Positions 5,049 to 53,875 of a stretch of DNA of 64,000 nucleotides are shown here, one piece after another. Position 1 is the stretch's first letter. Each line of letters begins with the position of its first letter. Below the pieces are notes generated by a model that was given only the letters and a program-made list of their open reading frames with translations, ran no database searches and was not told where the DNA came from. This DNA comes from Natronobacterium texcoconense (GTDB lineage: Archaea; Halobacteriota; Halobacteria; Halobacteriales; Natrialbaceae), in contig NZ_FNLC01000002.1 in the NCBI RefSeq assembly GCF_900104065.1, positions 726,995 to 790,994 of the forward strand, read 5' to 3'. A program made the translations under genes and the position numbers.

Positions 5049-5398
5049 CGAATCACCCGTACGTCGGATCCATCGGGGTTCTCTTCGAGCACCTGCTCGA
5101 GCGGTACTGGGTCACCGACCTGGTCGATCTTCGTCTCTGCGGACGAAGAGAAATCGACTGCAGCGACGGTGACGTTCTTCTGTAGTGCGCCGGATCCCAG
5201 CACCTTGCCGGGAACGACGACGGTCTCTTCTTCGCGTGCGTATCGCTCGATCTGTCCCAGGTTCACCTCAGCGTGAGTGCGCCGGGGCTTCTCGAGACGA
5301 TCCGCAACGTCTCGCCAGACGTCGGCGTCCGTCTCGCGGGACGTCGACTTCAGGTCGGCGATGAGATCGTTAAGTCTCGGGTTAGTCTTGCTACTCAT
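5045..5398 (-). CDS. rpl18e: 50S ribosomal protein L18e
   Basis: 117 aa from [16 protein letters not shown], which is the expected L18e start. An ATG seven codons upstream (5419) would add MQIWRQP and is not conserved-looking. The L18e/L15 fold residues [21 protein letters not shown] are present. First protein gene after tRNA-Leu in this operon; 90 nt separate them, consistent with tRNA processing from a common transcript. Confidence 0.94.
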
Positions 5399-5488
5399 TG
5401 GTTGCCTCCAAATCTGCAATCGACCGGCGACGGAGCGTCACCGGTCGTGGTCGTTGTACTGACCGTGGAATCAATTCGAGAGAAGTGA

Positions 5489-5573
5489 TGCAGGGAGCAG
5501 GATTTGAACCTGCGGACTCCTACGAGACAGCGCCCTGAACGCTGCGCCGTTGGCCAGACTTGGCTATCCCTGC
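5489..5573 (-). tRNA. tRNA-Leu (anticodon CAG)
   Basis: 85-nt class II tRNA. The acceptor stem GCAGGGA pairs with TCCCTGC, with discriminator A at 5489. The anticodon stem AGCG/CGCT encloses the loop TTCAGGG, so the anticodon is CAG (reads CUG). There is a long variable arm, and the T arm has GGTTCAAATCC. No CCA is encoded and no intron is seen. It heads the rpl18e-rpl13-rps9-rpoN-rpoK-eno-rps2 operon, as known for the halobacterial S9 operon. Confidence 0.96.
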
Positions 5574-5598
5574 TTGCACTTCTGTCTACCCGCCGCCC

Positions 5599-5616
5599 CT
5601 TCAAACCCCTTTCGAT
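5599..5616 (-). promoter_or_regulatory. Candidate promoter of the tRNA-Leu/S9 operon
   Basis: On the minus strand the sequence reads a purine-rich BRE-like CGAAAGGG followed by TTTGAAG, centred about 30 nt upstream of the tRNA-Leu 5' end at 5573. The position fits a haloarchaeal TATA/BRE pair for direct tRNA transcription. The box is not a strong consensus. Confidence 0.4.
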
Positions 5617-5745
5617 TCCATCGGACGAAACCGAGCCGCGAGACGCGAACGCGTCAGCCTCGTAGCACACGGCACTGACGGCTCTCCGTGCGTCCTCGCG
5701 CTCGATTTCGTCGGATTCGGGTCGGGGGCGTGGGTTCATACTAGT

Positions 5746-6495
5746 CTATAGCTGTACTGCTTCTTCGAGTTCGGTCGCGCGCGTCTCGATCGTGTCCGCG
5801 GCACGCGTGACCAGCTCTTCGACGGGGAACGAGCCGTCCGTCTCCACGCGGAAGACGAAGGCGTTCGGGACGTCCTCGACCTCGACCTCTTTACCGGGAT
5901 ATCGGTTCGAGAGGTCGTGATCGAACTCGCTCGTCGGAACGAGCTCTCCGTCGTCCTCGATTACGCCACGGACGATCCGGCTTTCTTCCTCCTCGAACTC
6001 CGGTACGTCGCCTTTCACCTCCACGCGCTGGAGGTGTCGGTAGCCGACGGCCACACCGCCCTGGTGTTTGGCGTGTTCCTTGCCGCGATCGAGCATTGCC
6101 TCGGCTTCGGCTTCCAGGCGCTGGCCGTCCTTGAGTTCGATGATCGGGACGTTCTCGTCCGCTGGCTCGACGAGCTCGTCGCTCGTCTCGAGATCGCCGG
6201 AGTAGGCGGTGGCTGGTCCTTCGACGTCGATCGAGAGCGTGACGGTGTCGTCCTCGCCGAACTCGCCTTCCGGTGGGGTCGTCAGCGGGACGAGCCCCAG
6301 TCGAAGTGCGAGTTGTTCGTCGAACATGACCGACGAGTTCTCGATGAACCGAACGGTATCGATCGCCATCGTGGGCACGTCGGCGAGCATCGCGCGACGA
6401 ATCCCGTTGGCGAACGCGGGCGTAACGCCGCGAACGAGAAACCGCGCGTCTCGGTCGTCGCGTTCGACGAACTCGACGTCGTACTCCTCAGTCAT
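5746..6495 (-). CDS. rpoD: RNA polymerase subunit D (Rpb3/alpha-like)
   Basis: 249 aa. Assembly platform subunit of archaeal RNA polymerase that pairs with RpoL. It shows the alpha-motif region [22 protein letters not shown] near residue 30 and the C-terminal alpha dimerisation segment. No cysteine-rich ferredoxin-like insert is present, as expected for haloarchaea. It ends the rps13-rps4-rps11 operon, 3 nt after rps11. The DNA between it and tRNA-Leu (5574-5745) has no gene. Confidence 0.96.
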
Positions 6496-6498
6496 GGT

Positions 6499-6888
6499 CT
6501 AGTAGCCGCCCTTGCCTTTGGGAGCGCGCGATCCGTCGTGTGGGATCGGCGTGACGTCCTCGATTCGTCCGATCTCGATACCGGAGCGAGCGAGCGCACG
6601 GATCGTCGCCTGTGCGCCCGGACCGGGGGACTTCTGGAGGTTTCCGCCGGGGCCACGGACTCGTACGTGGAGTCCGGTGATGCCTGCGGCCTTGACCTCT
6701 TCGGCGACGGATTCGGCCATCTGCATCGCAGCGTACGGCGATGCTTCGTCGCGGTTCTGCTTGACCGCCGTTCCACCGCTGGACTTGGCGATCGTCTCCG
6801 CGCCCGTGAGGTCCGTCACGGTCATGATGGTGTTGTTGAACGATGCGTGCACGTGGGCGATGCCCCACTTTTCGTCGTCCTGGCTCAT
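6499..6888 (-). CDS. rps11: 30S ribosomal protein S11
   Basis: 129 aa. Platform protein of the small subunit. Diagnostic segments: [20 protein letters not shown] at the N-terminus, [20 protein letters not shown] in the middle, and the end [21 protein letters not shown]. Adjacent genes are rps4 (3 nt upstream) and rpoD (3 nt downstream), the standard archaeal alpha-operon order. Confidence 0.98.
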
Positions 6889-6891
6889 GGT

Positions 6892-7413
6892 TTACTGACC
6901 CTCCGCGCGTTCCGGGTGAAGCTCGTCCGCGAGCGGGCTGTTCTCGTCGAACTCGACGAGGTTCTCCTCGTCGACGTCGACGACGTAGGATGGCACCTGG
7001 TGGCGCTGGCCACCGACCACGATGTGACCGTGCGTGATGAACTGGCGAGCCTGCTCGGGCGTGTTCGCGAATCCCTTGCGGTAAACGACCGTCTGGAGTC
7101 GGCGTTCGAGGACGTCTTCGACCTCGAGGCCGAGGACGTCGCCGAGTTCGTCGGCTTCGTCGAGGATGCCGACGCGCTTGAGTCGTCCGAGGAACTCCTC
7201 GGAGCGGCGGGCGACGACTTCGTCGCCCTGGGCCTGGCCGAGCAGTTCCCGTGCCTCGCGCCGGTAGGAACGAAGCTGAGACTGGGCACGCCAGAGCTCC
7301 TCTTTGTTCTTGAGGCCGTAGCGGTCACTCAGGGAGTGTTCGGTGGCGATGCGTTCACCCTGGTAGGGGTGATTCGGCGTCTCGTACTGTTTGGTGTCGG
7401 TTCCGAGTGGCAT
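6892..7413 (-). CDS. rps4: 30S ribosomal protein S4
   Basis: 173 aa. Primary 16S-rRNA-binding protein that nucleates small-subunit assembly. The S4 RNA-binding domain is visible in [20 protein letters not shown] followed by [19 protein letters not shown]. The N-terminus is [20 protein letters not shown], typical of the archaeal/eukaryotic S4/S9e group. It lies 2 nt after rps13 and 3 nt before rps11. Confidence 0.97.
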
Positions 7414-7415
7414 CG

Positions 7416-7937
7416 TTATTCACCCTCCCCTTCGTCGTCGCCTTCTTCGGCAGCCTCTTCGCGGATCTCTTCGACGTTGACTCCGATGGTGCCCTCCGTA
7501 CGACCGGTGGACTTGGTTCGCTGACCGCGAACCTTCTGGCCGCGCTTGTGACGCACGCCCCTGTAGGAGTCGATCATCTTCATCCGGTTGATGTCGTGCT
7601 GACGAGTCAGCTGGAGATCGTTGCCGATCTCGTGGGTCGTTTCGCCGGTGTAGAAGTCCGACTGGCGGTTGTTGAGCCAGTCAGGAACTTCGTCGGCGTA
7701 GTTCTCTACGAGTTCGACGACCTCGTCGATGACGTCGTCGTCGAGTCGACCGAACGTCGCCGTTCGATCGACGCCCGCTTCGTCGGCGATGATTCGGGCG
7801 GTCCGTCGACCGACTCCGTTCATCTCCGACAGCGAGCGCTCGACCGACTTCGTCCCGTCGAGGTCGGTTTGACCGATACGGACGAAGTACTGAAGGTCTT
7901 CGTCCTCCTCTTGTTCTTGGGGTTCTTCTGCGCTCAT
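7416..7937 (-). CDS. rps13: 30S ribosomal protein S13
   Basis: 173 aa. Head protein of the small subunit contacting the intersubunit bridge. It has an acidic haloarchaeal N-terminus, then [20 protein letters not shown], the helix-hairpin-helix [16 protein letters not shown], and the basic [20 protein letters not shown]. The acidic C-terminal tail is a normal halophile feature. First protein gene of its operon, 73 nt after tRNA-Ser. Confidence 0.97.
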
Positions 7938-8010
7938 GTGTCGTGTATCTGTGTCTGGTCTGCAGGCGTTGCAAAGTCGACTGGCGAAAGGCCAGTCTCG
8001 GTAAATCCGA

Positions 8011-8093
8011 CGTCGTGGCGGGGATTCGAACCCCGGAGGCTTGACGCCACATGGTTAGCAACCATGCGCCTTGGGCCGCTTGGCTACCACGAC
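8011..8093 (-). tRNA. tRNA-Ser (anticodon GCT)
   Basis: 83-nt class II tRNA. The acceptor GTCGTGG pairs with CCACGAC, with discriminator G at 8011. The anticodon stem CATGG/CCATG holds the loop TTGCTAA, giving anticodon GCT (codons AGC/AGU). The T arm contains GGTTCGAATCC. No CCA is encoded. It precedes rps13 in the same direction and is probably part of its transcript. Confidence 0.95.
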
Positions 8094-8179
8094 ACCGTTT
8101 CTGTCTGGTATCGTCGCCCTCTCGGACTCGGGGATCACTCCCCTACACGTATTGCACCCGAACGTACCCCGGTCGACTA

Positions 8180-8185
8180 CTTAAG
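8180..8185 (-). promoter_or_regulatory. CTTAAG box, candidate promoter of tRNA-Ser/rps13 operon
   Basis: GCTTAAGTAG on the minus strand, about 90 nt upstream of the tRNA-Ser 5' end, would give a 55-60 nt leader before the tRNA. The same CTTAAG core occurs 27 nt upstream of tRNA-Val (47814) and before the TFB gene (53931), which supports its use as a TATA-type element in this genome. Confidence 0.35.
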
Positions 8186-8284
8186 CGCAACGAAAGTCTC
8201 GGGCCGTCGGCGGGATATCCCATGCCAGCCACCAGCACGCCGACGAACCTACTAGTGGGCTGACTTTATTATGGCGGGGCTGCT

Positions 8285-8290
8285 GGAGGT
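8285..8290 (+). promoter_or_regulatory. Strong Shine-Dalgarno that sets the GTG start at 8296
   Basis: A perfect GGAGGT lies 5 nt upstream of GTG 8296, with a TTTATTA-like TATA box about 30 nt upstream of the codon (8264-8270). It is one of the few clear leadered starts in the window and decides the non-ATG start of the DUF4129 gene. Confidence 0.65.
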
Positions 8291-8295
8291 AACTA

Positions 8296-9255
8296 GTGCC
8301 CCGAGATCGACTCCCCTCCGTCGTTCGGCTGGCCGCCGCCATCGGCGGTATCGCCGCGATCGCTCTGGCCGCTGCGACCGTCGAATCGCCCGTCGAGTTC
8401 GGCGATTCGGGCGGTGCCGGCCCCGGCGACGGCGAGGGAGTCGGCGTCACCGACCAGCCACCCGGTTCCCAGCCAGCCGACCCTCTCGACGTGCCACCGT
8501 TTCTCGAGTACCTCATCTACGCCCTGCTGATTCTCGGCGCGATTATCGTGGTCTGGTATCTGCTTACCCACAGACGCGACGCCCTCCGCGTGATCGCGCT
8601 CTGTCTGTTCGTCGCCCTCGCCGTCTTCGCAATCGTCCAGTTGATGCCCGAGTTACCGCCGCCGGAAGGTGCCGTCGAAGAGCCAGTCGGGGGATTCGAC
8701 GGCGGCGACGGTGACGGGTTCGGAACCGGGAACGGCGATGCGGTCGCCGGCGAACCGCTGCTTGCGGTCCTCGCGCTCGTGACCGCGATCGTCGTCGGCG
8801 GACTCTTTCTCAGCCGTCACAGGGATTCGGAAGCGACTCCCGGCGAGACGCCGGCCGAACCCGACGACGGCGAGGACCGAGTCCCGGGTACCGCAGCCGT
8901 CGGCTCCGCTGCAGGTCGAGCAGCCGACCGGATCGAGGGCGGGACCGACGTCGACAACGAGATCTATCGCGCCTGGCGGGAGATGACCCGCCCGCTCGAG
9001 GTCGATCGGCCGGAGTCGAGCACGCCTCGCGAGTTCGCCGATGCTGCGATCGAGGCCGGCATCGACCGCGAGCACGTCGAAGAACTCACTCGTCTGTTCG
9101 AGGACGTCAGGTACGGCCACGAGGAAACGACGCCGGAGATGGAACGGCGGGCGACGACCGTCCTCCGGAAGATCGAATCGGTCTACACCGACGTCGACGA
9201 CGAGCCGACCGATTTCAGCGAGCCAGACGATAGCGGCTGGGGGGACAGTCGATGA
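8296..9255 (+). CDS. Membrane protein with C-terminal DUF4129 domain
   Basis: 319 aa, GTG start set by the GGAGGT at 8285. An N-terminal hydrophobic helix (about residues 9-28) is followed by a Gly/Asp-rich linker, membrane segments at about 72-92, 98-116 and 155-173, then a cytosolic acidic linker. The C-terminal part (IYRAWREMTRPLEV...STPREFADAAIEAG, about 225-310) matches the DUF4129 domain found beside transglutaminase, DUF58 and MoxR genes. The biochemical role is unknown; the family context suggests assembly or quality control of surface proteins. Its stop overlaps the DUF58 start (ATGA), so the two are co-translated. Confidence 0.85.
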   Translation: MPRDRLPSVVRLAAAIGGIAAIALAAATVESPVEFGDSGGAGPGDGEGVGVTDQPPGSQPADPLDVPPFLEYLIYALLILGAIIVVWYLLTHRRDALRVIALCLFVALAVFAIVQLMPELPPPEGAVEEPVGGFDGGDGDGFGTGNGDAVAGEPLLAVLALVTAIVVGGLFLSRHRDSEATPGETPAEPDDGEDRVPGTAAVGSAAGRAADRIEGGTDVDNEIYRAWREMTRPLEVDRPESSTPREFADAAIEAGIDREHVEELTRLFEDVRYGHEETTPEMERRATTVLRKIESVYTDVDDEPTDFSEPDDSGWGDSR

Positions 9256-47984: not shown

Positions 47985-48044
47985 AGATTTGAACGAGGCG
48001 AGACGGCGCAGCGAAGCGAGCACGTCTCGACGTTGTTCAAATCT
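47985..48044 (+). repeat. Second inverted repeat containing tRNA-derived arms
   Basis: AGATTTGAAC (47985-47994) pairs with GTTCAAATCT (48035-48044); inner arms GCGAGACG and CGTCTCG extend the stem. The right arm is part of a copy of the tRNA-Val T arm. Confidence 0.6.
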
Positions 48045-48052
48045 GGCCCAAC
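48035..48052 (+). repeat. Direct partial copy of the tRNA-Val 3' end
   Basis: GTTCAAATCTGGCCCAAC matches GTTCAAATCTGCCCCAAC at 47900-47917 in 17 of 18 positions, in the same orientation, 135 nt downstream. Confidence 0.7.
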
Positions 48053-48146: not shown

Positions 48147-49502
48147 TCACACGACTTCACGAAGAACGACCTCGAGATCCCGCTCTAGCTCCGACGCCTG
48201 GAGTATCGTGATCGGCTTGTCGGCTTGATCACCGAGCGAAGCCGTATCGGACTCGAGATCCTGAACGACAAGGAGACCGTTCCACCCCGAGCCAAAGCAG
48301 TTCTGGGCATCGGGGTCGCTCTTGTGCTCGAAGACGAATTCCTCGTTGACACGCAGGAACGCGAGATATTCGAGCGTCTCCTTGACTCCCTGTCGTATCG
48401 TATCGACGTTCGTGCTGTTTTTCACTTCGGTTATCAGGTACTCGTGGTCGCCGTTCTCGGAGATGATCTCGAGGACGATGATGTCGGGTCGACCGGTGTG
48501 GTTTCGAAACTCTCGGCCGAAGTAGTCGCTCGCGATTTCCTGGGCGGTGAGCTGAACCTTCTCGGTTCGCGACAGCTCGTCTTTGTCCTCCTCGGGAACG
48601 GCGAGAAAGGACAGATCGCGGTCTCGGGCGGAGTTGTCGTGGTAGAGGACGATCTCCTTGTCGCCTTCGAACCGTGCAACCTCCTGTCGGTCCGTGGCGA
48701 TCGTCTTGAACTGGGGCTGGGTCTCCCGTAGCTCCTCGAGCGTCGCGACGAACCGGAACAGGACGAACAGTTCGAACAGCGAGTCCGTGTCGTCGGGTGC
48801 GATCGCCGTTTCCTCGAGCAGCGTTCGAATCGCGTCGGGTTCGCCTCGGAACAGTTCCTGTCGAGAGCGGAGGAGCGACGCGGCGTTCCGGTAGAGATCG
48901 TGTCGCGAGTTCGCGGCAGTCGTGAGCATACGCTCGGTCGGTTCGTACGCTTCCGGATCTCGAATCCGTCGGACGTGAACGTTCCGTTCGACGATTCGCT
49001 GCAACTCGTCGATCAGATTCTCGTTGCCGTTCCACGTCTCGCTGACCCACTCGTACTCGCCACGGAGATACTGTTCTGCCTCCTGAATCGTAGTGTGAAC
49101 GACCGAGATGAGGTGTTTGAGAACGACGTTCTCCGGAATGTCGTAATCCTCGGATCGATTCTCACAGACGAAGATCGAACTATCTCGAGGATAGTCGGAG
49201 TATCGTTTCTCGATCGTGTCCTGCCAGTTGATTCGGCCGTCGACGGTTCCGCGTCGAGTTCGTGACCGCGTCCGGGTTTCCGTTCGAACACTGCGGAGCT
49301 GTTTCGGCAGTTCCCTGACGAACGAGACGACGTCCTCCTTGAGGATGAAATGGAGATCGAGAAGGAGTTCGTACTCCTCGAACCGCTCGTCTAGCTGCTC
49401 GGGCTTGATCGACTTCGCCAGTTCGCGTTCGGGAAAGCTCCCATGCATCGCGTATGCCAGGATGTCCTGGGTGAGCTCCTCGAGCAGTTCGTCTCTATTC
49501 AT
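48147..49502 (-). CDS. PD-(D/E)XK nuclease-like partner of an McrB-like ATPase
   Basis: 451 aa. The N-terminal 230 residues are helical, with IFVCENRSEDYDIPENVVLK, similar to the PEN...LK segment of DUF2357/McrC-type proteins, and SLFELFVLFRFVATLEEL around 241. The C-terminal part carries a PD-(D/E)XK core: RPD (338-340) ... ITEVKNS with Glu359-x-Lys361. Likely the nuclease subunit of a restriction-like defence pair. Its ATG overlaps the ATPase stop by 8 nt, so the two are coupled. Low sequence similarity to classical McrC; the name is functional inference. A frame open 85 codons further upstream is the shadow of the ATPase gene. Confidence 0.72.
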   Translation of the reverse strand: MNRDELLEELTQDILAYAMHGSFPERELAKSIKPEQLDERFEEYELLLDLHFILKEDVVSFVRELPKQLRSVRTETRTRSRTRRGTVDGRINWQDTIEKRYSDYPRDSSIFVCENRSEDYDIPENVVLKHLISVVHTTIQEAEQYLRGEYEWVSETWNGNENLIDELQRIVERNVHVRRIRDPEAYEPTERMLTTAANSRHDLYRNAASLLRSRQELFRGEPDAIRTLLEETAIAPDDTDSLFELFVLFRFVATLEELRETQPQFKTIATDRQEVARFEGDKEIVLYHDNSARDRDLSFLAVPEEDKDELSRTEKVQLTAQEIASDYFGREFRNHTGRPDIIVLEIISENGDHEYLITEVKNSTNVDTIRQGVKETLEYLAFLRVNEEFVFEHKSDPDAQNCFGSGWNGLLVVQDLESDTASLGDQADKPITILQASELERDLEVVLREVV

Positions 49503-51738
49503 CGGTGAGCGGAACCTGAAGCATCTCTCCTGCTGCTCGCTCGAGTAACGATTCGTCGACGTCCTGAACGGCTGCGATCCGACGAACGATTCGCTTTCGT
49601 TTCGGAACCCCCTCCAGCTGCGGGAAGACGTAGCTGATGACGGCCTGAGTGAGATGATACTCGAGTTCCGCTTCTGGGTGATGGGAGACGTATCGGAGAA
49701 CGTCTTCGATGATCGCCGGTCCGATCGCTCGTTCGTCGATTGCGTGGTTCGTCTCACGCCAGACGCGCCCGACGGCCATCGCCTGTTTCCGACCGACGTC
49801 GATGTTCCAGCTATCAGCGTAGTCGAAGACGATGTCCTCCAGTATTTCCTCGTCGGCCTGGCTTTCGGGAAGTCGAGGCGCTGGGACTCTGACGAACGCG
49901 AACCGACGCATGAACGCGTAACTCATCTCGTACAGCGAGGTCTTGTCGTACGCGTTCATCGTCGCGAAGATGCGCCACGAGCTCGGGACGTGGTACTGGT
50001 GGGCTGCAGGAGCCCCGTTCGATCGCTCGGCCGTCGAGAGTTCGATTTCGTGACCGTTCTCGGTGTAGGGGAGTTGGACTGATTGTCCGGAGAGAAGCGT
50101 GAAGAGTTGGCCGAACGCCTTGTCGATGTCGGCTCGGTTGAGTTCGTCGATGACGATCAACTCGTTCGACTGCGTGCCCGTATCGCTGTCCTTGAGCCGA
50201 TTGAGAACGATACCTGGTTTGAACGAGAGGTTCTCCTGTCCCGTATCGGACTCGCCCGGCATGTATCCGCCCACGGTGTCGAACGTCGACCAGTCCGCGG
50301 TCGCAGTCGTCATTTCGAAGTCCGTGTAGAGATGCGGGTGTGTCCGGACCAGATAGTTACAGACCCGCTCTGCGATTTCGGTCTTTCCAGTTCCCGGCGG
50401 CCCAGTCAGGAGGACGTGCTTACCTGAACGGAGCGCAGTCGAGATGCTCTCGAGGATCTTTCGCCCCTGGTCGTTTCTGAAGTACAGTCCCTCGAGTATC
50501 TCCTCCGGGATCGATCCGTCGAACGTGTCGTAGACGTTGACCGGGGATGCATCGGCCAACTCCGCGGCCATAGCTTCGATCAGCGTTACCGGTCGCTCGC
50601 GATCGGGTTCGCCGTCCTCCGTTCGGAACGCTGCAAACGTCGACTGGACCGGAAACTCGGTGCCGGAGACGTCCGTGCAAATCCCGTTTGCCCGTTCGAT
50701 AGGCAGACAGTTTGCCGTGAGAGCAGCTATCTCGCGGCCGATCACGTCGCGGTCTTTCTCCTCGAGTGAACGGGCGGTGTCGATCTCTTCTACCGAGCCA
50801 CACCAGAACACCCGATCGAAACTCGCAACGAGCGGGAACTCCTTTTCGTCCGTGTACTCGTCGCCCCACCACGGCTCGTCCTTTTCGAACTTCTCGCCGA
50901 GGATTCCAGCCCCGATCAGCCCGCTCGTCTGGTCGGCAAGATCGGGGTTCGACGGTTCGGCCCGTGAGTGAAAGAGCACGACGTCGCCGGACTCGAGTTG
51001 CCTCCAGTTGCTCCGGTCCTCGAACGAGACCGAACTGTACTCGAGTGCCGTGAGCCAGTAGTCCGGCGGTGCCGTGAACTTGTAGACGGTCGATTCCGTT
51101 GCTTCGATATGCTTCGTCAGTGGATGATCGACGATCGTCGACTGATCAGGTTCGTCCTCGGTGACGACCGGATACCGTTTTTCACCCTTGATCCGTTCGA
51201 GGAACGCCTCGACGGAGGAAAATTCGGAGGAGAAGCTCGATCCGCTTCGATCGAAGTTGATCGCGCTGAAGGTGTCGTTCGGCCAGCCCTTGAACCCGAT
51301 CGTGTCCCAGAACTCCGCACGGTCGAGTTCGGCCTCGTAGATCGGCTCGAGAAACATTACGTGCGGGAACGATTCGTCGGTGACCTCTCCCCAGCCGACG
51401 ACCTGCGTGAACGTTTCGGCCGTGTCCTCGTCAAGGACGGTCGCGTGAGCGATTCGGGCCAACGTCGTGTACGATCCGTCTCTACGGCCGTTTCGGTCGG
51501 CAAACAGCAAGTAATCGCCCTCGTCGGCTGGCTCGTCTTCCTGATTTCCCCACACACGTAGCGTGTCGTGGTCACCCGGTACGTCACAGATGTTCTCGAG
51601 GCACTCCCGTCTCACTCCCTCGAGAACGGTTCGTTCGAAGTTGGTCCGAATCGGCCCGTCGCCAGTCTTCACTGGCACCTGATAGATCGTCGGCTCGCCG
51701 TCCTCCGTGAACCACGCTGTCACGTCCTCGTCGGTCAT
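49495..51738 (-). CDS. McrB-like AAA+ ATPase with two N-terminal PUA/EVE-like segments
   Basis: 747 aa. The C-terminal half is an AAA_5/McrB-type motor: Walker A GPPGTGKT (446-453), Walker B ELIVIDELNRAD (526-537), sensor FATMNAYD (591-598) and arginine-finger region FMRRF. The N-terminal half has two beta-rich segments, about 70-135 (DYLLFADRNG...YTTLARIAHATV) and about 225-315 (SGDVVLFHSRA... GLIGAGILG ... FPLVASFDRVFW), which look like PUA/EVE-type modified-base readers. Inferred role: recognises modified or foreign DNA and drives the nuclease encoded next. The start ATG is overlapped by the stop of the 40-aa leader gene (ATGA). Confidence 0.78.
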   Translation of the reverse strand: MTDEDVTAWFTEDGEPTIYQVPVKTGDGPIRTNFERTVLEGVRRECLENICDVPGDHDTLRVWGNQEDEPADEGDYLLFADRNGRRDGSYTTLARIAHATVLDEDTAETFTQVVGWGEVTDESFPHVMFLEPIYEAELDRAEFWDTIGFKGWPNDTFSAINFDRSGSSFSSEFSSVEAFLERIKGEKRYPVVTEDEPDQSTIVDHPLTKHIEATESTVYKFTAPPDYWLTALEYSSVSFEDRSNWRQLESGDVVLFHSRAEPSNPDLADQTSGLIGAGILGEKFEKDEPWWGDEYTDEKEFPLVASFDRVFWCGSVEEIDTARSLEEKDRDVIGREIAALTANCLPIERANGICTDVSGTEFPVQSTFAAFRTEDGEPDRERPVTLIEAMAAELADASPVNVYDTFDGSIPEEILEGLYFRNDQGRKILESISTALRSGKHVLLTGPPGTGKTEIAERVCNYLVRTHPHLYTDFEMTTATADWSTFDTVGGYMPGESDTGQENLSFKPGIVLNRLKDSDTGTQSNELIVIDELNRADIDKAFGQLFTLLSGQSVQLPYTENGHEIELSTAERSNGAPAAHQYHVPSSWRIFATMNAYDKTSLYEMSYAFMRRFAFVRVPAPRLPESQADEEILEDIVFDYADSWNIDVGRKQAMAVGRVWRETNHAIDERAIGPAIIEDVLRYVSHHPEAELEYHLTQAVISYVFPQLEGVPKRKRIVRRIAAVQDVDESLLERAAGEMLQVPLTDE

Positions 51739-51857
51739 AGCTCCGTGACACCTGCCGATCGTGACTGTTCTGGTTCGTGCTTCTCGAACGAACCTACCGC
51801 GGTCTCGAGAGAGTCCCAGCCCGCGATATCCGTCGCGGTAATCTGCTGGAGAGTCAT
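51735..51857 (-). CDS. 40-aa leader gene of the AAA/nuclease operon
   Basis: 40 codons, MTLQQITATDIAGWDSLETA...; no cysteines, no membrane segment. Its stop overlaps the ATPase start as ATGA. A TATA-like TTCATAAGA lies about 25 nt upstream of the ATG, so it is the leaderless first gene of the operon; an ATG 23 codons earlier (51926) would lie upstream of the promoter. No recognised family. It may be a regulator or immunity peptide, or simply drive coupled translation. Confidence 0.5.
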   Translation of the reverse strand: MTLQQITATDIAGWDSLETAVGSFEKHEPEQSRSAGVTEL

Positions 51858-51956
51858 ACGGCGATGGATACACTCACATCTTATGAATGTACGGCCCTCG
51901 GATACGACGCACCCGACATCACTCACTCGAGACCGAGACAGACGGTTGCAATCGAG

Positions 51957-52688
51957 TTACGCGTCCTCGAGCCGCTCAACAGTATCCACGACTCCCGCCA
52001 CGAGATTCTCCGGCGAAAACCCTCGAACCAGCCGCGACTCGAGTCGCTTCCGTGCGGTAATCCGTTTGTGTCTCGCTTCCGTACTTCCGACACCCTTCGG
52101 CCGTTCGATCTCCACGATATCGGCAATCGGGTCGACGATGGAGCCGCGGGTGACGTCCTCGTAGACGCGTTCGGTCTCGAGGTCGGCGAGCCAGAGCGTC
52201 CACTGGAAGCCGTCCGTCCCGATGGCGGCCAGCACGCCGTCGTCGCCGGCCGCCTCGCGAAACGCTTCGTCGTCGAGGTAGCCAGCGATCGCCTCGGTCG
52301 CTGCCCCCGGTGATTCCCGACGTTCGCGGTTGATGGCCGTCACCTCGAGGACACAGGTGAGGCGGTCGTCGACACCCAGCAGTTCGTATTCGGGCCGGGA
52401 TCGATCGACCGTGGGGTAGTCGGACGGCTCGCGTCGAAGCCGAACCGACGAATCGGCGTCCGAGTAGCCAAGCGCCTCGAGACACGGGTCGACGAGTTCG
52501 CGTCGGGTGAACTCTTCGGGCGACTGCTCGAGGACGACGCCGTTGACGCACTCGCCTTCGAGGAGGGTGTGTAGCTGTCCGCCCTCCCGTCGGGCGATGA
52601 AGGATTCGACGAACCGCTGGACGACGCCGACGAGCTGGCCGGCGCGACGGTCGTCCTGGCTGTAATCGGTGAGGCTACTCTGGGTCAT
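51957..52688 (-). CDS. Restriction-enzyme N-domain-like protein, possibly inactive
   Basis: 243 aa starting MTQSSLTDYSQDDRRAGQLV. The order (PEEFTRRELVDPCLEALGY... then SRPEYELL...TCVLEVTAINRE) matches the N-terminal nuclease domain of type I/IIG restriction enzymes, but the expected E-x-K reads E-x-T (Glu115-Val-Thr117). No methylase or helicase domain follows, so it is either a truncated remnant or a repurposed domain. It sits 99 nt upstream of the 40-aa gene on the same strand. Assignment is tentative. Confidence 0.55.
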   Translation of the reverse strand: MTQSSLTDYSQDDRRAGQLVGVVQRFVESFIARREGGQLHTLLEGECVNGVVLEQSPEEFTRRELVDPCLEALGYSDADSSVRLRREPSDYPTVDRSRPEYELLGVDDRLTCVLEVTAINRERRESPGAATEAIAGYLDDEAFREAAGDDGVLAAIGTDGFQWTLWLADLETERVYEDVTRGSIVDPIADIVEIERPKGVGSTEARHKRITARKRLESRLVRGFSPENLVAGVVDTVERLEDA

Positions 52689-52861: not shown

Positions 52862-53875
52862 TTACTCTCTCGGTGCGAACTCGAGTTCCGAGCAGTCGTA
52901 CGTGTAGCGTTTGATCCCGTTTTCCTCGCAGTGGCCGGCCAGCGTTCCGGGGCAGACGGCTTCGGCTTCGAAGTCCCCGAGGTAGGCGACGGTCACTTCG
53001 TTTCCCTCCGAACGTTCGACCACCACGGCCGTGTTCGGATCGTCGTGGCTGGTCTTGATCACTCGATCCCCCGGAACGTACGGGTTCCGTGCGAACTCGA
53101 GGTTTTCGTGGTTGTACGTCCAGCGTTTGATGTCCGTGTCGTCACAGTACGACGCCAGAATCGCCGGATGGTACTCGCGCCAGTCGGCAGGCCCGTCGTC
53201 GAGCGAACTCGGGAACGCGACCCGGACCGCCTCGCCGTCCATCTCCTGACCGAAGGCGCTCGTGTTCTTCTCGGGCGGTAACACCTCGATGACGACGCCA
53301 ACCGACCGATCGTCGTCGCTGGCTTTCACCACTCGATCGCCCGGCTGGAACGGGTTCTCGGGTTTCTGGTTCATGTGGGCGGTGTTCGGTCCGAGTTCGA
53401 GTAACTCGTTCATCGGGCGTGCCGCGAGGTGGTCGAGTTTCGCCGGCGACTCGCCCGAGTACTGCGTTTCCGTCTCGACTTTCGACTCGAGCGTCTCGAC
53501 CCGTTCCCAGCCAAGCATGATGAGACTGTCCTCGTTGTCGCGGTGCCAGACCATCACCACGATGTCGTCGTCGGAATCGCGCTCGACGAGCGTCTCGGGC
53601 AGGAACGCCGAAACGTCTCGAGAGGTCTTCACGTCTACCTCGTAGCCGAACACCTCGAAGTCGTGACCGGCGAAACTCTCGGGGTTGCACCGCCGCATCG
53701 CTTCCTCGTTTTTCCACTCCCACATCTCGACGGGCAGGTATTCGCGACAGAACTGCTCGAACGCGAGTTCGCCCAGGTTTCCGATTCGTTTGCCGTCCAC
53801 GTCGTCGGCCCCCTGGATGACGGCCTGGTGGTTTGCGCGTTCGTAGTCTATTTTATCCGGTATGAACCGATACAT
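52862..53875 (-). CDS. PD-(D/E)XK nuclease-like protein with two tandem C-terminal repeats
   Basis: 337 aa. N-terminal nuclease-like core: GNLGELAFEQF (Glu36), HDFEVFGYEVDVKTSRD with Asp72 and Asp81-x-Lys83, the D...(D/E)xK pattern. The C-terminal half has two copies of a roughly 75-residue beta-rich unit: about 177-262 (PGDRVVKASDDDRSVGVVIE ... IKRWTYNHENLEF) and 267-334 (PGDRVIKTSHDDPNTAVVVE ... IKRYTYDCSELEF). The repeats resemble SH3/KOW-like folds. Not a family I can name. It is on the same strand as the AAA/nuclease block, 173 nt upstream of the 243-aa gene. Confidence 0.6.
   Translation of the reverse strand: MYRFIPDKIDYERANHQAVIQGADDVDGKRIGNLGELAFEQFCREYLPVEMWEWKNEEAMRRCNPESFAGHDFEVFGYEVDVKTSRDVSAFLPETLVERDSDDDIVVMVWHRDNEDSLIMLGWERVETLESKVETETQYSGESPAKLDHLAARPMNELLELGPNTAHMNQKPENPFQPGDRVVKASDDDRSVGVVIEVLPPEKNTSAFGQEMDGEAVRVAFPSSLDDGPADWREYHPAILASYCDDTDIKRWTYNHENLEFARNPYVPGDRVIKTSHDDPNTAVVVERSEGNEVTVAYLGDFEAEAVCPGTLAGHCEENGIKRYTYDCSELEFAPRE

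What the first reader, a model, noticed from the sequence alone, without database searches (positions are those of the whole stretch)
48147..51857. Candidate defence operon: AAA+ ATPase with two reader-like domains, overlapping nuclease, 40-aa leader
Three tightly overlapping minus-strand genes (ATGA and 8-nt overlaps). The 747-aa ATPase has an McrB-type motor ([25 protein letters not shown]), but its N-half holds two separate beta-rich segments (about 70-135 and 225-315) resembling PUA/EVE modified-base readers; most McrB proteins have one. The partner has a PD-(D/E)XK core (RPD...EVK) and a PEN-like N-segment closer to DUF2357 than to classical McrC. McrBC and EVE-McrB systems are established; the double-reader layout plus leader peptide beside a tRNA is what may be new.
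Basis: partly seen in the sequence, partly recalled or inferred. Interest (0 to 1): 0.8.

Follow-up and report, generated by a model that had tools for sequence, protein, structure and literature searches.

The report
Two-reader McrBC behind a scavenged promoter
This is a haloarchaeal member of the known McrBC family of DNA-cutting defence systems, unusual in carrying two stacked modified-DNA reader domains, and its supposed leader peptide is the leftover front end and promoter of a different restriction-modification gene.

Summary
The 747-aa motor and 451-aa nuclease genes overlap by 8 nt, and an adjacent homologous pair occurs in all 110 loci examined. The motor is McrB (best PDB match E. 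coli McrB, Z 17.3). The partner is a genuine but highly diverged McrC (best Foldseek match E. coli McrC, E 3e-5; invariant RPD...EVK) that no family library recognises. Reader 1 (residues 14-190) is a YTH-like domain of the Thermococcus gammatolerans McrB type (Z 14.5; profile E 2e-6), a domain reported to bind 6mA DNA. Reader 2 (204-348) is EVE-like, by profile reach and predicted topology only. The double-reader layout is one state of a much-shuffled array: relatives carry extra winged-helix, SRA-like, MrcB_N, MTaX1 or EVE modules, and the helical insert between the readers was lost at least three times. The 40-aa "leader" is not a dedicated peptide: it and 37 nt upstream are 87% identical to the promoter and start of an Eco57I-class type IIG gene, which in another genome follows the same 337-aa neighbour. 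The most likely function is modification-dependent (type IV) restriction. The antiviral role and 6mA specificity are inferred. Mutual exclusion with the type IIG gene was tested and not seen.

The parts
49495..51738 (-). McrB-family AAA+ motor with two N-terminal reader-like domains (747 aa)
   Evidence: AAA_5 E 2e-17; McrB best PDB sequence hit E 1.7e-12; AF2 pLDDT 85.9; E. coli McrB Z 17.3
51169..51699 (-). Reader 1 (residues 14-190): YTH-like domain of the T. gammatolerans McrB type; invariant Trp 63 and Trp 116 align with two TgMcrB Trp
   Evidence: 6p0f Z 14.5, rmsd 3.3, 158 aligned, 23% identity; profile vs 6p0f E 2e-6 with alignment; relatives fused to an HNH-like domain
50695..51129 (-). 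Reader 2 (residues 204-348): EVE-like domain; conserved W228, GD, WWxDE
   Evidence: profile reaches proteins whose matched part is Pfam EVE (E 1.9e-10 and 5.6e-10); PH1033 and 6p0f are the top two PDB hits but weak (E 0.18, 0.22); predicted beta-alpha order
49513..50493 (-). AAA+ McrB motor domain (residues 416-742) with NxxD signature (MNAYDK)
48147..49502 (-). McrC: DUF2357-like helical/stalk part plus PD-(D/E)XK nuclease (451 aa)
   Evidence: Foldseek E. coli McrC 6hz4_M E 3e-5, prob 1.0; VIA Z 8.5, 8.1, 8.1 to McrC chains; 4 of 92 homologues touch DUF2357 weakly
48420..48491 (-). Nuclease core RPD...EVK (residues 338-361)
   Evidence: invariant or at least 90% in 92 homologues
51735..51857 (-). 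40-aa leader ORF = 5' stub of an Eco57I-class type IIG R-M gene (about the first 26-33 codons), then unrelated codons
   Evidence: residues 1-28 58-68% identical to the N-terminus of about 1200-aa proteins, E 7e-7 to 9e-6; DNA 79/91 identical; full gene hits Eco57I E 6e-25 and REase_MTase_IIG E 4.7e-67
51858..51894 (-). Promoter inherited from the type IIG gene (TATA-like ATTCATAA about 28 nt before the ATG)
   Evidence: start of the 79/91 DNA match to L145; TATA role inferred from sequence
51957..52688 (-). 243-aa neighbour of unknown family; looks HsdR_N-like by eye only, with EVT where EVK would be expected
   Evidence: no hit in Pfam, PADLOC, NCBIfam or PHROGs; resemblance judged by eye
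52862..53875 (-). 337-aa neighbour found beside McrBC or the type IIG gene in some relatives; also carried by a haloarchaeal virus
   Evidence: (phrog_18072 E 1.6e-182)
48035..48052 (+). Partial copy of the tRNA-Val 3' end (17/18 identical), possible old integration scar

Best explanation
A McrBC-type (type IV, modification-dependent) restriction system. McrB subunits form an AAA+ ring (inferred from family; probably GTP-driven). Their N-terminal arms carry two tandem PUA-superfamily readers: a YTH-like domain of the type that binds 6mA DNA in Thermococcus gammatolerans McrB, and an EVE-like domain. When a reader binds modified DNA the ring moves along it, and the bound McrC, with its PD-(D/E)XK core, cuts. 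The operon is transcribed from a promoter scavenged from an Eco57I-class type IIG restriction-modification gene; the 40-aa ORF is that gene's leftover 5' end, and McrB is translated after it through the ATGA overlap. Shown: homology, pairing, predicted fold of reader 1, McrC assignment, sequence origin of the stub and upstream region. Inferred: ring, nucleotide, modified-base specificity of each reader, cleavage, antiviral role, promoter activity, translational coupling.
For: Motor. Partner: RPD/EVK invariant or nearly so in 92, best fold E. coli McrC. Pairing: nuclease adjacent in 110 of 110 loci, with an 8-nt overlap in nearly all closer relatives. Patchy: 125 of 392 order genomes match at E 1e-20 or better, a count that includes more distant McrB relatives. 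Reader 1: 6p0f Z 14.5, profile E 2e-6 with two invariant Trp aligned; TgMcrB YTH binds 6mA DNA (PMC12707154, PMC7680126). Reader 2: profile reaches EVE proteins. Interchangeable N-modules MrcB_N E 2e-41, MTaX1 E 1.8e-7, EVE E 9.6e-8. Reader-1 relatives fused to an HNH-like domain. Stub and promoter.
Against: No functional data. The nuclease model is of moderate quality (pLDDT 75.5, pTM 0.61) and Foldseek TM-scores are low (0.19-0.24), so the McrC call rests on local fold match plus pairing and motifs. Reader 2 is not recognised by Pfam in any of 39 members, profile-profile scores with the EVE set were low, and it was not searched as a separate model. Reader specificities are not determined; the cage assignment rests on alignment. 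The sensor motif is MNAYDK, not MNxxDR.
Confidence: 0.88

Rival explanations
1. The locus is a DpnI/DpnII-like cassette swap: a 6mA-dependent McrBC replaced a 6mA-writing type IIG system at the same site, because the two cannot coexist, and kept its promoter.
For: Stub and promoter of an Eco57I-class gene at the junction; in G200 the same 337-aa neighbour precedes the intact type IIG gene; reader 1 is TgMcrB-like, a 6mA binder; alternative DpnI/DpnII/DpnIII cassettes are known (PMC12707154).
Against: No mutual exclusion: of 125 family genomes 33 have the strong reader-1 match, 25 the type IIG match, 6 both, 6.6 expected. The 337-aa gene sits near neither in 16 of 20 other genomes checked. Specificities unknown.
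Confidence: 0.15
2. The 40-aa ORF is a functional regulatory leader or small protein of the defence operon.
For: ATGA overlap with the motor start; slightly positive coding score (4.5); it is the first ORF after the conserved upstream region.
Against: Found beside no other McrB relative; its first about 28 residues match the N-terminus of a 1200-aa enzyme; DNA identity includes the non-coding upstream region and stops inside the ORF; by eye, 4 of 5 codon changes in the matched part are non-synonymous.
Confidence: 0.08
3. The two readers bind RNA or act in a non-defence role (PUA, EVE and YTH domains also bind RNA).
For: The PUA superfamily includes RNA readers; CoCoNuT McrBC relatives are predicted to target RNA (PMC11090510).
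Against: NxxD motif and no long coiled coil, unlike CoCoNuTs (and predicted structure); always paired with a PD-(D/E)XK McrC whose core is intact; N-modules swap with MrcB_N, MTaX1 and EVE; reader-1 relatives fused to an HNH-like domain.
Confidence: 0.04

Closest known systems
Thermococcus gammatolerans McrBC (YTH-McrB; 6p0f, 6ut5)
   Same: archaeal McrB with N-terminal YTH-like reader, McrB AAA+ motor, McrC partner; reader 1 matches at Z 14.5
   Different: one reader only; here a second EVE-like domain lies between reader 1 and the motor, and sequence identity is about 23%
EVE-McrB fusions (Bell et al. 2020, PMC7641849)
   Same: EVE-superfamily reader fused to McrB; additional domains reported as frequent
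   Different: the EVE-like domain is too diverged for Pfam and is stacked behind a YTH-like domain; the tandem pair was not found described in the papers I could read
E. coli K-12 McrBC
   Same: motor fold, McrC fold and adjacency
   Different: E. coli uses MrcB_N (DUF3578) as reader; some relatives of this system carry that very domain as an extra N-terminal module (L047, L049)
Eco57I-class type IIG R-M (source of the leader stub)
   Same: upstream region and about the first 26-33 codons
   Different: all enzymatic domains absent from the window

Membership tests
McrBC type IV restriction | McrB AAA+ motor with Walker A/B and Nx(xx)D signature | tested here: met
   Invariant GPPGTGK, DE, N595 and D598; McrB best PDB sequence and fold match; MNAYDK rather than MNxxDR
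McrBC type IV restriction | adjacent McrC with DUF2357-like N-part and PD-(D/E)XK nuclease | tested here: met
   110 of 110 loci; Foldseek McrC E 3e-5; VIA Z about 8; invariant core; model only moderate
McrBC type IV restriction | N-terminal specificity domain(s) | tested here: met
   two domains resolved in the AF2 model, swapped for known readers in relatives
McrBC type IV restriction | GTP use and modification-dependent DNA cleavage | not testable with these tools
   needs biochemistry
YTH-like reader (TgMcrB N-domain) | fold and sequence similarity over the whole domain | tested here: met
   Z 14.5 over residues 14-185; profile E 2e-6
YTH-like reader (TgMcrB N-domain) | 6mA-binding aromatic cage | tested here: inconclusive
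   two invariant Trp align with TgMcrB Trp; pocket geometry not inspected
EVE domain (reader 2) | profile homology to Pfam EVE | tested here: inconclusive
   indirect link at E 1e-10 to Pfam-EVE proteins; direct Pfam and PDB profile matches not significant
CoCoNuT | NxD motif and long coiled coils | tested here: not met
   NxxD invariant; no long coiled coil in the model
Type IIG R-M gene (leader ORF) | methyltransferase and nuclease domains | tested here: not met
   only the upstream region and N-terminal stub remain

The most novel reading that the evidence does not exclude
Haloarchaeal McrBs are combinatorial reader stacks (up to four candidate readers: winged helix, SRA-like, YTH-like, EVE-like) in which two or more marks must be read together, and this copy arose by a recombination that deleted a 6mA-writing type IIG gene, took over its promoter, and left a two-reader McrBC that now cuts the mark the lost gene used to make.
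Probability: 0.1. Interest if true: 0.65.

Novelty: new variant of a known kind. Interest (0 to 1): 0.4.

Why it matters
It shows that one McrBC motor-nuclease cassette in haloarchaea carries a variable stack of candidate DNA-modification readers, giving a natural series (one, two, three or more modules on the same motor) with which to ask whether tandem readers act as OR or AND gates. It also explains an apparent leader peptide as a recombination scar, a warning against reading small upstream ORFs in defence islands as new components.

Tried and rejected
Direct Pfam, PADLOC and NCBIfam hits for the nuclease: none in its single-sequence scans; over 92 homologues only weak DUF2357, PDDEXK_9 and McrBC touches. 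Profile-profile comparison of readers 1 and 2 with each other and with the EVE set gave low probabilities, so no claim of a reader duplication is made. Pfam on 39 reader-2 members: no EVE, YTH or PUA match. The VIA list for the motor model is filled by AAA+ chains, so no structural hit for reader 2 was visible; that is no evidence against it. Viral contigs: no relative of the nuclease found. Leader as an N-terminal extension of McrB: the upstream in-frame extension shows no resemblance by eye to relatives' N-modules (sequences). Mutual exclusion of McrBC and the type IIG gene: not seen. The TgMcrB structure paper (PMC6970917) is not held.
Full report
What is there. Three minus-strand ORFs are present at the stated coordinates: leader 51735-51857, motor 49495-51738, nuclease 48147-49502, with ATGA and 8-nt overlaps. 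The 8-nt motor/nuclease overlap recurs in nearly all closer relatives, and the nuclease is adjacent to the motor in all 110 loci fetched. At E 1e-20 or better, 125 of 392 genomes of the order match the motor protein, a count that includes more distant McrB relatives; presence is patchy even within the genus, as expected for a defence system.

The motor is McrB. Pfam gives AAA_5 (E 2e-17), NCBIfam and PDB give McrB as the nearest relative, and the AF2 model (pLDDT 85.9) matches E. coli McrB best (Z 17.3). The McrB signature is NxxD (MNAYDK), with N and D invariant in the 65-row alignment. This excludes the NxD CoCoNuT branch described in PMC11090510. McrB is described as GTP-specific (PMC7680126), so 'ATPase' should be read with care.

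The partner is McrC. No family library recognises the window protein, and plasmid records call its relatives hypothetical proteins. The AF2 model (pLDDT 75.5) finds E. coli McrC as its best Foldseek match (E 3e-5, prob 1.0) and three McrC chains at Z 8.1-8.5, although global TM-scores are low and Can2 nuclease chains score as well for part of the chain. The RPD...EVK core is invariant or nearly so in 92 homologues.

Reader 1, residues 14-190. It superposes on the N-terminal domain of Thermococcus gammatolerans McrB (6p0f: Z 14.5, rmsd 3.3, 158 residues, 23% identity), and a 33-row profile finds the same entry at E 2e-6. Two invariant Trp, W63 and W116, align with Trp in TgMcrB. That domain has a YTH fold and is reported to bind 6mA DNA (PMC7680126, PMC12707154). 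More distant relatives of reader 1 occur in about 340-350-aa proteins whose C-terminal part looks HNH-like by eye, the layout of known two-domain modification-dependent endonucleases. 6mA specificity here is inferred, not shown.

Reader 2, residues 204-348. The AF2 order of strands and helices is that of EVE/YTH/PUA-like domains (from general knowledge of the fold). A 39-row profile, run over 345 genomes of the phylum, reached proteins whose matched segment is Pfam EVE (E 1.9e-10 and 5.6e-10; Pfam EVE 5e-6 and 7e-7) and a protein in which the domain precedes what looks by eye like a nuclease part (L117). Against PDB sequences the two best hits, PH1033 (UPF0310) and 6p0f, are both of this superfamily but weak (E 0.18 and 0.22). 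Pfam sees no member directly and profile-profile scores with an EVE set were low. I call it EVE-like with about 80% confidence.

The layout is one state of a shuffled array. Module mapping shows relatives with a helical insert of about 130 aa between the readers, a further N-terminal extension of about 330 aa (winged-helix-like part plus an SRA-like part, the latter only E 0.14 in Pfam), MrcB_N (E 2e-41), MTaX1 (E 1.8e-7) or Pfam EVE (E 9.6e-8). On the McrC tree the insert is missing from the window, from L002, and from L003/L004/L047, three separate places; the sister clade of the window mostly carries the long form with the N-extension. The window copy is therefore probably a reduced version.

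The leader is a stub. A search of 61 genomes found that residues 1-28 are 58-68% identical to the extreme N-terminus of about 1200-aa proteins in four genomes (E 7e-7 to 9e-6). At the DNA level window 51804-51894 is 79/91 identical to the upstream region and start of one of them, L145. That gene in full (L154, 1208 aa) is an Eco57I-class type IIG restriction-modification enzyme (Pfam Eco57I E 6e-25; PADLOC REase_MTase_IIG E 4.7e-67). In the same genome the next gene found upstream is an 80%-identical homologue of the window's 337-aa gene at 52862-53875, so the local order is shared. The window genome has no close copy of the type IIG gene. Relatives without the stub start McrB directly behind a different, conserved promoter-like sequence. 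The simplest history is that a recombination joined the type IIG promoter and its first 26-33 codons to a McrB gene; loss of a longer N-extension in the same event is possible but not shown. The stub may still serve for coupled translation.

Surroundings. In two same-genus genomes the segment between tRNA-Val(CAC) and the AmmeMemoRadiSam-like gene holds other genes, and in L152 virus- or plasmid-like genes (by eye) follow the tRNA. A 17/18 copy of the tRNA 3' end lies at 48035-48052. This fits a site of recurrent insertion; the tRNA is not a component of the system.

A tested but unsupported extension. Because reader 1 resembles a 6mA reader and the lost gene was probably a 6mA writer, I asked whether the two exclude each other, as in DpnI/DpnII cassettes (PMC12707154). 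Of 125 family genomes, 33 have the strong reader-1 match (E below 1e-70), 25 the type IIG match and 6 both, against 6.6 expected (my count from the tables). No exclusion is seen, with phylogeny uncorrected and specificities unknown. The 337-aa gene lies near McrBC in only 4 of 20 further genomes.

Verdict. An ordinary kind of system (McrBC) in an unusual two-reader form, with a well-supported explanation for the leader. Most likely function is type IV restriction of modified foreign DNA; specificity and activity remain to be measured.

Noticed in passing
L182 (G335:C2:3082000-3088000), L183 (G276:C19:41500-49500), G362:C34: Type IIG genes occur as oppositely oriented halves, or as a full copy plus an inverted extra 3' half, flanked in L182 and L183 by a recombinase-like gene (by eye); looks like an invertible, phase-variable type IIG specificity system.
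   Followed up: partly
upstream of McrB in L008, L010, L011, L014, L017, L035, L039 and others: Conserved promoter-like sequence AACAGGATTTATAGGTAGATACTGTCTCGA with an ACAG-N16-CTGT dyad spanning the TATA-like box, close before the ATG; possible operator.
   Followed up: no
window 52862-53875: 337-aa protein (PHROG 18072, unknown function; nuclease-like motif by eye) found in 43 of 125 family genomes, beside McrBC or type IIG in some, and in Haloferax virus Halfgib1.
   Followed up: partly
L153 (G000:C2:664000-683000), 5088-9198: A second, diverged McrB/McrC pair (915 and 457 aa) in the same genome, outside the window.
   Followed up: no
L178, L179, L180, L181: Reader-1-like domains in stand-alone proteins of about 340-350 aa with an HNH-like C-terminus, two of them divergently side by side in L179.
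   Followed up: partly
L118 (64-1890): A protein with a radical-SAM-like N-part (by eye) and a C-terminal Pfam EVE domain.
   Followed up: no
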